DNA from: Pegea sp. RAD2-039
Lineage: Eukaryota; Chordata; Thaliacea; Salpida; Salpidae
Length of the DNA stretch: 64,000 bases
Assembly (NCBI GenBank): GCA_034620365.1
Contig: JAQGEQ010000314.1
Coordinates: 62,001-126,000, forward strand
Reading direction: 5' to 3'
In this document: positions 2,990-6,187 of the stretch, piece by piece
Numbering within the stretch: position 1 is the first letter of the stretch
Layout: the number at the start of each line of letters is the position of its first letter
Translations under genes and position numbers: made by a program
The notes under the pieces: generated by a model
Databases searched by the model: none
What the model was told of the DNA's origin: nothing
The model's input: only the letters and a program-made list of their open reading frames with translations

Positions 2990-5900
2990 TGACGTCATCA
3001 CCGCGTTGCTATAAAATCAAAACATTTTCAAGTTGACGCGTTAAAGGTGCGATGACGTCATGCGTGCAATGGTCATCAGTGGAGCGTGAAGTTATTTCCT
3101 TCCACGAGAACTTAGTGACGTCAACAGGTTGCGTCAGCCAGGCGTGACTGATGACGTCATCAATCGAAAAACGTTTCTCAACGTTTACTTCCAACAAATT
3201 CTCTAATAAATCCATCAATTCTGCAATCGATGACGTCATTACAAGTCACAACAAATGACGTCATCGTCACTTACCATGTGACGTCACAAAGCTCATCGAC
3301 AAATCGCGGAATCGCGTAAATTCCGAAATCTCGTCGACGGTTTCAAAAGGATTTTCTCCGAAGATTAAAGTGAAGAGAGTGACACCTAGCGACCAAACTT
3401 CAAGGGGAGGCCCCGAATAGCTGCGATGACGTCATCAGTGTCATGTGATCGGTCGTTATGGCAACTTACGGATTTCCAGTCAGTGTCTCTGGTGCTGAAT
3501 AGAGGGGAGTTCCCCAAAAAACTTCGAATTTTTCATCTTTTTCAAAACTTGAAGCTGTTCCGAAGTCTGCAAATCGATGATGACGTCACATACGCGCGAA
3601 ATGATGACGTCACTCACCGATTAGTTGACAAACAAAGTTGGAATTGATTATGATGTTTTCATCTTTAATGTCGCGATGAATGATTTTCTTCGAATTCAAA
3701 TAGTCGACGGCAGACGCGACCTGATGACGTCATCAATCAGTTATGACGTCATTGTTAACTTGTGACGTCACTTACTTGTCGAAAAATAAAACTTGATAAA
3801 AACTCATCACTTTGACCGCCGCTGATGTCAATGAAATCAAACAAATCGATGACGTCATCACCTAGTGACGTCATCACTAATGCAAAGTGAGTTTCAGTTT
3901 GAAAGAATTCTCGAAAATCCACAATATTTTGATGACGTAATCTAATCGCGTCAAAAAGACAGTGATGATGACGTCATGAAGATTGAAAAGTCACCCACTT
4001 TCGAAGGAAGTAAACTTCTGAAGGAATCTTTATGCCGTCATCGATGACGTAACAATCACTTCGCATTTTCGTTTTATCAACAAACTTGACAGTGACGCGC
4101 GTTGATGACGTCATATGCTTCGCAGAACGCACGAAGCCGAAACCTCCTTTACCGAGAATTTTATCAAAGGAATAAAAGTTGCTGATTTCACCATAACTCG
4201 TGACGTCATCGATTACTTCGACGCTGACGTCACGACATTTCGAATTGCTAACTTCATCGTCAGCTTCAGTACCAATAGTGACGTCATTGTTAGTGACGTC
4301 ATAGCTTGCTTCACAGCTAGCATCATAATTATCAGTGACGTCATCGTTTGTCTAGAAAACAAAAAAGTTATTTGATGATGACGTCATTGAGCGCAGCAAA
4401 CCGTATTAACTGATGATGACGTCATCAGCAGCGAATCGTCGAGACTAGTTGTAAGATTCGCGGTTGAAAGCGATTTGACGAAATTTAAATCGAAATTTAT
4501 CCATAAAAATTTTTCACCAAATTTTTTCCCATTTTTCATTTCAACAGTGACAGCTGCAGTAGAAAAGTGATGACGTCACTACCAGTGATGACGTCACTAC
4601 CGCTAACTTACGTAGTAACGATTCATCTTTATGACGTATAAAAGTGTTGCAAATGAATGAAACTTCTGATTTCCTCTTTACTGGTGTTGATGACGTCATA
4701 GGCGATGACGTCACGTCCCTTTTGTACATTGGTGATGACATCATAGGTGATGACGTCATGCCTCGTTTACACAGAGGAGATGACGTCATATTTATTTTAC
4801 GTATTGATGACGTCACAGGGGACAAGTTCTCATCTACTGATGACGTATTTCCGTTACTGTTGATAGCAGAATGTCGATGATGTCATATATGGTGATGACG
4901 TCACAAACAAACTTGATCTGATGACGTAATTGTCGATAATCAGGTAAAACTTCTTCGACTTTTTTATTCTTTATTTCTTCAAATCTAAATCCTAACAAAG
5001 TGCTCGAAAAGTTGTCGTTGACGTCACTGATGACGTCATCATCTTCTTGAATCGTCAAAAAGCCACCAATCGCGCTGTACAACGTCACTCTTACTTCGAT
5101 ATCACCTGTGATGTCATCGGTAAGTAAATGATGACGTCATCATGGTGATGACAAACCAGTGACGTCACAACGATTATGCAAATGAAGTGTGATAGGGAAA
5201 GAACCAGAATTGGAAATTGCAGAAAGAAATTGTTTCCGGTCGAAATTATCCAACTGAATTTTAGGAATTAAATTTTTTATTTGGAAACACTTTTCTCCGT
5301 GAATTTCCCAATTTTGAAAAATCAGTCGAAAATTATCATCAAAACTTTGAATTGTTCCCTAAAATGAATTAAAATAAAAAATGACAAAAAAACTCGAAGA
5401 AACTGACGTCAGAGGCGATGATGACGTCACTATGCACGCGCGCAACAGGCTCAAAAATAACCAAACATCGATTCTGTCTTCGTTTCATGCACATCGAAAC
5501 CGGCACTATGACGTCATCACGCCTTACTAATTCCACCTGAAATGATGACGTCATCACAACAACCGCGTGTTGCCATGACAACAACCGACCACGTGACCCT
5601 GAATTTGATTTTCGTCAACTCCGTTCTGCATCAGTGATTTCTTGCCGTGATTATTCGATTTACGAAAGAAGTCATCAAAACAGAACGAAGATAATTTCTC
5701 CTCATTCATCAGAAGACAACAATTTCGATTTGACGTCAGAATCTGATAATGACGTCACAGATCGAGTTTAATAACAGCGATAATGATGATGACGTCATCA
5801 CTTACCATATTTGTCGTGGTATCAAAAGTCAAAATAGCTTTTCCGTTTTCTGGCGTAGATGACATTATACTATTGACGTCAGAAAACGACTCGTCATTGC

Positions 5901-6187
5901 TTGATGACATAAAAGACCATGACGTCATCAAATTATGAGTTTGTAGCTTTCGGCTAAAAATTAGAGAATTCTTTTAATGACGTCATCAATTAACTAGAAA
6001 TTTACCTTTGAAATGAAAGACCAGCTGCAAGAAAATCTGTGAAATTTCACTTACGTCATCAACAGCGATGACGTCACAAACTTACCTGCTGAAGACTTGT
6101 GGTGTTTACGAGATGGTGACGTAAGAGCTTGAAAAGGAGAACTCCAAATCTGATATAAATCTGTAAACAAAAAATGTGATGACGTCA
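2990..6187. repeat. cluster of about 48 TGACGTCA palindromes (CRE-type) across PASK
   Basis: By hand I count about 48 perfect TGACGTCA octamers, mostly in the longer palindrome GATGACGTCATC, from 2990 to 6187. Near-matches (TGACGTAA, TGATGTCA, TGACATCA) are also frequent. The rest of the 64-kb window has only about five (439, 457, 10673, 16831, 47688). Copies fall in both introns and exons of the PAS kinase gene, are not in tandem register, and have unrelated sequence between them. TGACGTCA is the classical CREB/ATF binding site, but the position of these copies inside introns and codons argues against an ordinary enhancer. The origin is unknown to me. Confidence 0.95.

What the first reader, a model, noticed from the sequence alone, without database searches (positions are those of the whole stretch)
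2990..6187. PASK gene saturated with the palindrome TGACGTCA, with a copy in every intron
About 48 perfect TGACGTCA octamers lie in 3.2 kb, where chance predicts far less than one. My exon model closes in frame over 16 exons, and all 15 introns (49, 49, 51, 51, 52, 53, 54, 55, 56, 57, 57, 58, 59, 61 and 63 nt) contain or overlap at least one copy. The introns share little else. Introns of the other genes in the window are more variable in length and lack the motif. Possible explanations: (1) a short palindromic sequence was copied repeatedly into this locus, perhaps as an introner-like or template-switch process; (2) each copy is selected as a binding site for a CREB/ATF-type factor, making a nutrient-kinase gene its own cAMP-response array; (3) the copies base-pair in the pre-mRNA and act in splicing. 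I know of no described element with this behaviour.
Basis: partly seen in the sequence, partly recalled or inferred. Interest (0 to 1): 0.88.

Follow-up and report, generated by a model that had tools for sequence, protein, structure and literature searches.

The report
Gene bodies saturated with TGACGTCA palindromes
In the genome of what is likely a tunicate (a marine relative of vertebrates), one eight-letter palindrome occurs about 30 to 60 times more often than expected and is packed by the dozen into some genes, 48 times in the kinase gene PASK, where it likely arose by single-letter changes and is predicted to serve as an array of binding sites for CREB/ATF-type regulatory proteins.

Summary
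In detail: 48 exact TGACGTCA copies lie in 3.2 kb, and the gene is a PAS kinase on the minus strand with 15 predicted introns, 14 containing a copy and 1 overlapping one. But 26 copies are exonic, and PASK is not alone: the 105.7-Mb genome holds 27,792 copies, against 969 for the reversed control and about 458 expected. They come in bursts: 177 of 200 evenly spaced 1-kb bins have none, while other genes carry a dozen or more. Insertion is unlikely: 7 of 8 exonic copies in structure-alignable PASK domains lie in ungapped alignment, and only about 3 graded bases flank the core. Symmetric flanks and lack of AP-1-site enrichment point to CREB/ATF-type bZIP recognition. CpG is retained near copies, suggesting unmethylated segments. 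My reading: a gene-body array of CREB/ATF sites held by a weak, genome-wide force; a HIP1-like repair bias is the main rival. No sister-species, expression, methylation or binding data were available.

The parts
2990..6187 (.). Cluster of 48 exact TGACGTCA copies (20 wholly intronic, 1 overlapping a splice site, 26 exonic, 1 past the stop codon)
3009..6230 (-). PASK (PAS-domain kinase) gene, predicted CDS with 16 exons and 15 introns
   Evidence: exon search; 3dls E 1.4e-67; 1ll8 E 1.9e-7; CDS check
6161..6217 (-). predicted intron 1, one copy
6025..6085 (-). predicted intron 2, one copy
5954..6005 (-). predicted intron 3, one copy
5743..5805 (-). predicted intron 4, two copies
5537..5589 (-). 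predicted intron 5, one copy
5359..5407 (-). predicted intron 6; its 5' splice site lies inside the copy at 5404-5411
5106..5156 (-). predicted intron 7, one copy
4857..4912 (-). predicted intron 8, one copy
4554..4611 (-). predicted intron 9, two copies
4352..4401 (-). predicted intron 10, one copy (weak donor; a longer form is possible)
3942..3998 (-). predicted intron 11, one copy
3721..3775 (-). predicted intron 12, three copies, the first sharing the T of the donor GTAAGT
3567..3617 (-). predicted intron 13, two copies, the first sharing the T of the donor GTGAGT
3421..3469 (-). predicted intron 14, one copy
3221..3274 (-). predicted intron 15, two copies
6308..6357 (.). tandem array of the half-site variant (3.6 units of ATGACGTAATATAG) just 5' of the predicted start codon
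439..464 (.). two further TGACGTCA copies; three single ones lie at 10673, 16831 and 47688

Best explanation
The PASK gene carries 48 exact copies of TGACGTCA, most likely an array of binding sites for CREB/ATF-type bZIP proteins that would be kept by weak selection within a gene segment predicted to be free of DNA methylation. Shown: the copies lie in predicted introns and exons; the octamer is in excess genome-wide and comes in bursts; its flanks are symmetric and graded (about TGA-core-TCA); CpG dinucleotides are kept near copies. Inferred: the copies arose in place by base substitution; a protein dimer reads them; its occupancy keeps the segment open and unmethylated, which in turn preserves the CpG in the middle of each site. 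Untested: binding, methylation, effect on expression, and any benefit. The force needed is modest: in the clusters a perfect site outnumbers the average one-change neighbour about 75-fold (163 against 52 spread over 24 neighbours), which at equilibrium and with even mutation would equal a scaled advantage (4Ns) of about 4; that is a rough estimate.
For: Excess: 27,792 against 969 for the reversed octamer and 458 from a trinucleotide model that predicts the control well (1009 for 969). Protein-like recognition: symmetric flank preferences (+1 T or C, +2 C, +3 A, +4 none) in PASK (48 sites) and in four other loci (116 sites), with a nearly intact core. Specificity: AP-1 site TGACTCA not enriched in clusters (5 against 4.8) or genome (5,592 against 6,956); TGACGTAA (16 against 0.97) and TGACGCAA (6 against 1.0) enriched in clusters. 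Substitution: 7 of 8 exonic copies in alignable PAS and kinase domains are in ungapped stretches. DNA rather than protein level: exonic copies use both open phases, 11 and 15. Candidate reader: 12 bZIP matches, one of the five I read with a CREB-like basic region (name recalled). CpG: observed/expected 1.27 within 25 bp of copies, 0.70 at 201-400 bp and 0.38 at 801-1600 bp in cluster loci; 1.28, 0.91 and 0.62 in the even sample. Bins with copies have more CpG (median 0.85 against 0.62).
Against: No binding, expression, methylation or population data. The half-site variants are not enriched in the even sample (TGACGTAA 4 against 3.3; TGACGCAA 1 against 2.5). In cluster loci CpG rises again to 0.66 beyond 1.6 kb, and clusters also have high TpG and CpA (1.11 to 1.39), partly from the motif itself. 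The bZIP set is not large (12 matches), and the CREB-like gene's own 10-kb stretch has no copy. Genome-wide, one-off neighbours are also in excess (CpG transitions 11,070 against 4,532; others 26,055 against 15,037), which a recent neutral burst could give as well. Nothing explains why PASK needs 48 sites, many in codons.
Confidence: 0.42

Rival explanations
1. HIP1-like process: a repair or gene-conversion bias, perhaps tied to DNA methylation, turns near-matches into TGACGTCA and keeps them, with no benefit from each single site.
For: Same anatomy as HIP1 as described in PMC4390886 (abstract and passages): an iterated palindromic octamer, tied there to DNA methyltransferases; a reference title seen there says HIP1 spreads by nucleotide substitution. 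Copies lie in introns, linkers and domain codons alike. The genome has several intronless DNMT1-like gene copies. A weak uniform bias would suffice.
Against: Bursts rather than even spread; flank grading and tolerated half-site variants in clusters look like bZIP binding; no enzyme with this recognition site was found or sought; animal DNMT1 is a CpG enzyme without such a site (recalled).
Confidence: 0.27
2. CpG retention by itself: ordinary CREB/ATF sites and chance copies merely survive in germline-unmethylated, CpG-rich gene segments and decay elsewhere.
For: Copies co-occur with high CpG; CpG-transition neighbours are in excess genome-wide (11,070 against 4,532).
Against: With the motif masked, the clusters' own trinucleotides predict 0.57 copies against 163 found. 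Other CpG palindromes are not raised in the clusters to a comparable degree.
Confidence: 0.12
3. RNA role: copies pair with each other in the pre-mRNA and help short introns to be removed, or form double-stranded RNA.
For: All 15 predicted PASK introns carry a copy, with 2.6 times the exon density; in two introns a copy shares the donor's T, and in one the donor lies inside a copy.
Against: Many exonic copies; TGACGTAA, which breaks self-pairing, is enriched in clusters; flanks are symmetric, not oriented with transcription, apart from position +2 in PASK (30 against 19 of 48). Lower exon density is expected from coding constraint alone.
Confidence: 0.08
4. Copy-and-paste: an introner-like or template-switch process inserted the octamer repeatedly.
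For: Very high copy number, bursts, few decayed copies in clusters.
Against: No shared unit beyond about 14 graded bases; 7 of 8 exonic copies in ungapped alignments; an 8-bp insert would shift the reading frame; introns stay at 49-63 nt with one to three copies.
Confidence: 0.04

Closest known systems
HIP1 and other highly iterated palindromes of cyanobacteria (PMC4390886: abstract, outline and passages read)
   Same: A palindromic octamer iterated thousands of times, one-off variants biased by position, apparently gained by substitution, also inside genes
   Different: Animal nuclear genome; bursts in some genes instead of even spread; the octamer is a known bZIP site; no matching site-specific methyltransferase known
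Cyclic-AMP response element TGACGTCA (PMC1796609: abstract and passages read)
   Same: Identical octamer; central CpG; CpG-transition variant TGATGTCA also in excess here
   Different: Vertebrate sites are biased to just upstream of transcription starts and the paper found no such bias in Ciona; here dozens fill single gene bodies, exons included
Homotypic clusters of transcription-factor sites (listing only; otherwise recalled)
   Same: Many sites of one type close together
   Different: Here they span a whole coding region, including domain codons, and recur in unrelated genes
Introner elements (recalled)
   Same: A short sequence present in every predicted intron of a gene
   Different: No shared intron-length unit, and copies are as well in exons

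Membership tests
Highly iterated palindrome (HIP) | Palindromic octamer far above expectation genome-wide | tested here: met
   27,792 against 969 control and 458 expected
Highly iterated palindrome (HIP) | Spread by substitution, not insertion | tested here: inconclusive
   7 of 8 exonic copies ungapped against solved structures, one gene only, distant relatives
Highly iterated palindrome (HIP) | DNA methyltransferase specific for the site | not testable with these tools
   DNMT-family matches exist (11 matches); their site preference cannot be read from sequence
Highly iterated palindrome (HIP) | Roughly even spread over the genome | tested here: not met
   variance/mean 2.0 per kb; 177 of 200 bins empty
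CREB/ATF site array | Site matches the canonical CRE with bZIP-like symmetric flanks | tested here: met
   canonical CRE named in PMC1796609
CREB/ATF site array | A CREB/ATF-type protein is encoded | tested here: met
   12 bZIP matches; CREB-like basic region at C14 (name recalled)
CREB/ATF site array | Protein occupies the sites and affects the gene | not testable with these tools
   no ChIP, ATAC or expression data
Introner element | Introns share a common inserted unit | tested here: not met
   flanks random from position +4; intron list
Introner element | Confined to introns | tested here: not met
   26 of 48 copies exonic

The most novel reading that the evidence does not exclude
An animal counterpart of HIP1: a genome-wide, site-specific force rewrites DNA in place into TGACGTCA, in introns and in domain codons alike, filling the unmethylated parts of many genes with CREB/ATF sites and so building methylation-proof gene bodies.
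Probability: 0.3. Interest if true: 0.85.

Novelty: new variant of a known kind. Interest (0 to 1): 0.66.

Why it matters
If true, a regulatory protein's binding preference, or a repair bias, can reshape many gene bodies and even protein sequences of an animal. It would give a second, eukaryotic case of the unexplained highly iterated palindromes, in a group where polymorphism, ChIP and methylation data could decide between selection and biased repair. It also bears on how some genes stay CpG-rich in genomes that methylate others.

Tried and rejected
Introner or insertion origin: argued against by the flank profile and by domain alignments. A PASK-specific cAMP circuit: other genes carry the motif too. 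Other palindromes: TCATATGA looked enriched in the even sample (68 against 7.2), but 63 of 68 copies lie in one locus, in a repeated context. An ETS-like signal (AGGAAGTG) in the clusters came mostly from one repeated stretch (9 of 11 matches). A paralogue or second allele of the region: none, the one match is the region itself. The exon search gave no output in its first form and no path for tankyrase, so 'a copy in every intron' was tested in full only for PASK. A cruder splice-signal scan found copies in 7 of 7 strong introns of PASK and in 1 of 1, 0 of 1 and 3 of 3 of three other genes; in its antisense control 2 of 3 false introns also held copies, so it decides nothing. A BTB/RCC1-type label for the gene in L027 is by recall; one of its frames had no solved-structure match. 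The PASK protein search gave only distant kinases. A genome-wide tally of dense pairs could not be run. The assembly is large and the tool lists only the first places, so which genes are loaded is known only for a few stretches, nearly all on contig C1. Prior description: paper searches; none of the listings, abstracts or passages I saw describes this pattern, but most subscription papers are not held.

Full report
What is there. The window holds 53 exact TGACGTCA, 48 of them in 2990-6187, where shuffling predicts 0.4 in the whole 64 kb. The region encodes, on the minus strand, a PAS-domain kinase: my exon search gives a 2406-nt CDS from 6230 to 3009, whose product matches the solved PASK kinase (3dls, E 1.4e-67) and the PASK PAS domain (1ll8, E 1.9e-7). 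I dropped one of the 16 introns of the search output (4018-4059, 42 nt, the only one without a copy), because it would delete residues aligned to 3dls. All 15 introns kept (49-63 nt) carry a copy, one by overlap at its 5' splice site. Twenty copies are wholly intronic, one overlaps a splice site, 26 are exonic and one lies 11 bp past the stop codon. Density is 28.1 per kb in introns and 10.8 in exons.

The organism. For the neighbouring gene (28819-30744, very-long-chain acyl-CoA dehydrogenase) the four best named hits among the 120 listed are tunicates (Ciona, Phallusia, Clavelina, Styela; 60-65% identity); unnamed environmental proteins reach 72%. I take the genome to be a tunicate's; the species is not known to me.

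Genome-wide. The genome (105.7 Mb, 387 contigs) holds 27,792 TGACGTCA against 969 for the reversed octamer. A trinucleotide model built on 226 kb of sample predicts 458, and predicts the control well (1009). The 14-base palindrome TGATGACGTCATCA occurs 1,972 times, its reverse never. The PASK region itself is single-copy. In 20 evenly spaced 10-kb pieces of contig C1 there are 34 copies; 23 of 200 1-kb bins have any, with variance twice the mean. Three further samples of 8-10 kb from other contigs had none. By contrast four stretches of 6-10 kb carry 14, 30, 18 and 54 copies; these were picked because they hold copies. They include a tankyrase gene (SAM domain match) and a tropomodulin/leiomodin-like gene.

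How copies arise. Eight exonic PASK copies fall wholly in stretches aligned to solved structures, six in the kinase and two in the PAS domain. Seven lie in locally ungapped alignment (for example [10 protein letters not shown] against [19 protein letters not shown] against PVNLADYTW); opposite the eighth (3850) there is a one-residue gap. An inserted octamer would shift the frame. Exonic copies use both open phases (11 and 15) and never the phase that reads TGA as a stop (the model excludes stops by design). So the pressure appears to be on DNA letters rather than on an amino-acid pair. This rests on one gene and distant relatives, so I call it likely, not shown.

What recognises it. Around the core the preferences are graded and symmetric: +1 T or C, +2 C, +3 A, +4 none, in PASK and in four other loci alike. 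A copied 14-mer would decay evenly; here the core is nearly intact and the flanks are loose, as for a protein binding site. In six cluster stretches there are 163 perfect sites and 52 one-off sites, of which 16 are TGACGTAA and 16 the CpG transition. AP-1 (TGACTCA) is not enriched in clusters (5 against 4.8) nor genome-wide (5,592 against 6,956 expected). TGACGTAA and TGACGCAA are enriched in clusters (16 against 0.97; 6 against 1.0) but not in the even sample (4 against 3.3; 1 against 2.5). I read this as CREB/ATF-type recognition. The genome has 12 bZIP matches; of the five I read, one has a CREB-like basic region (the name is recalled). A second palindrome, TCACGTGA, is enriched too (4,614 against 237; expected 463).

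Decay. Genome-wide, one-off neighbours number 37,125: 11,070 CpG transitions (expected 4,532) and 26,055 others (expected 15,037). This excess alone would also fit a recent neutral burst; it is the flank shape and the ungapped alignments that speak against that.

Surroundings. Bins with copies are richer in GC and CpG. Leaving out the core and three bases each side, CpG observed/expected falls from 1.27 next to copies to 0.38 at 801-1600 bp in the cluster loci, then is 0.66 farther out; in the even sample it falls from 1.28 to 0.62. The genome has 11 matches to the DNA methylase family, some of them exons of one gene and seven with long open frames (832 to 873 residues); of the two I read, both look DNMT1-like and one lacks the usual catalytic PCQ (recalled motif). 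CpG-poor bins have slightly more TpG and CpA than CpG-rich bins, but so do the clusters. I infer that loaded segments are unmethylated in the germ line; cause and effect cannot be separated here.

Mechanism. I think CREB/ATF-type occupancy of gene bodies is favoured, weakly, at very many sites, and that occupancy keeps the segment unmethylated. A repair or conversion bias like the one proposed for HIP1 (PMC4390886, abstract and passages) is the main rival; both predict substitution-born, near-perfect palindromes. Ciona is reported to lack the promoter bias of this site seen in vertebrates (PMC1796609, abstract and passages), which is at least compatible with gene-body use in tunicates. A salp genome paper (PMC10686999, passages) reports another abundant motif (G-quadruplexes); the passages do not mention this one.

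Verdict. The molecular cause is open.

Noticed in passing
own genome G000: C57:819728-821071 and 825001-826344, C249:1740707-1742050, C32 (three places), C52:9209-10639; loci L035, L036: Several multi-copy DNA-methyltransferase-family genes with long uninterrupted frames, probably retrocopies of a DNMT1-like gene; two sit in inverted orientation 4 kb apart, and the one read on C32 lacks the usual catalytic PCQ.
   Followed up: partly
own genome, e.g. C1:23084-23096 and C1:555832-555844: A second palindrome, TCACGTGA, occurs 4,614 times against 237 for its control, sometimes overlapping TGACGTCA.
   Followed up: partly
window 1777-2907: Minisatellite of 63 units of 18 bp (AGCACCCTAAACCACCTC) directly downstream of PASK, open in one frame for long stretches.
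   Followed up: no
window 6308-6357: Tandem 14-bp units ATGACGTAATATAG, carrying the half-site variant of the motif, just upstream of the predicted PASK start.
   Followed up: no
window 28819-30744: A very-long-chain acyl-CoA dehydrogenase gene uninterrupted over 642 codons, unlike the intron-rich PASK.
   Followed up: partly
window 17609-19221: A 1.6-kb tandem array of 13-bp units (TGGGACAGTGACC).
   Followed up: no
window 11512-13192: Reverse-transcriptase-like frames with a 465-bp tandem duplication inside.
   Followed up: no
window 3567-3617, 3721-3775 and 5359-5407 (minus strand): In two PASK introns the last T of the splice donor (GTGAGT, GTAAGT) is the first T of a TGACGTCA copy, and in a third the donor GT is the one inside a copy.
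   Followed up: no
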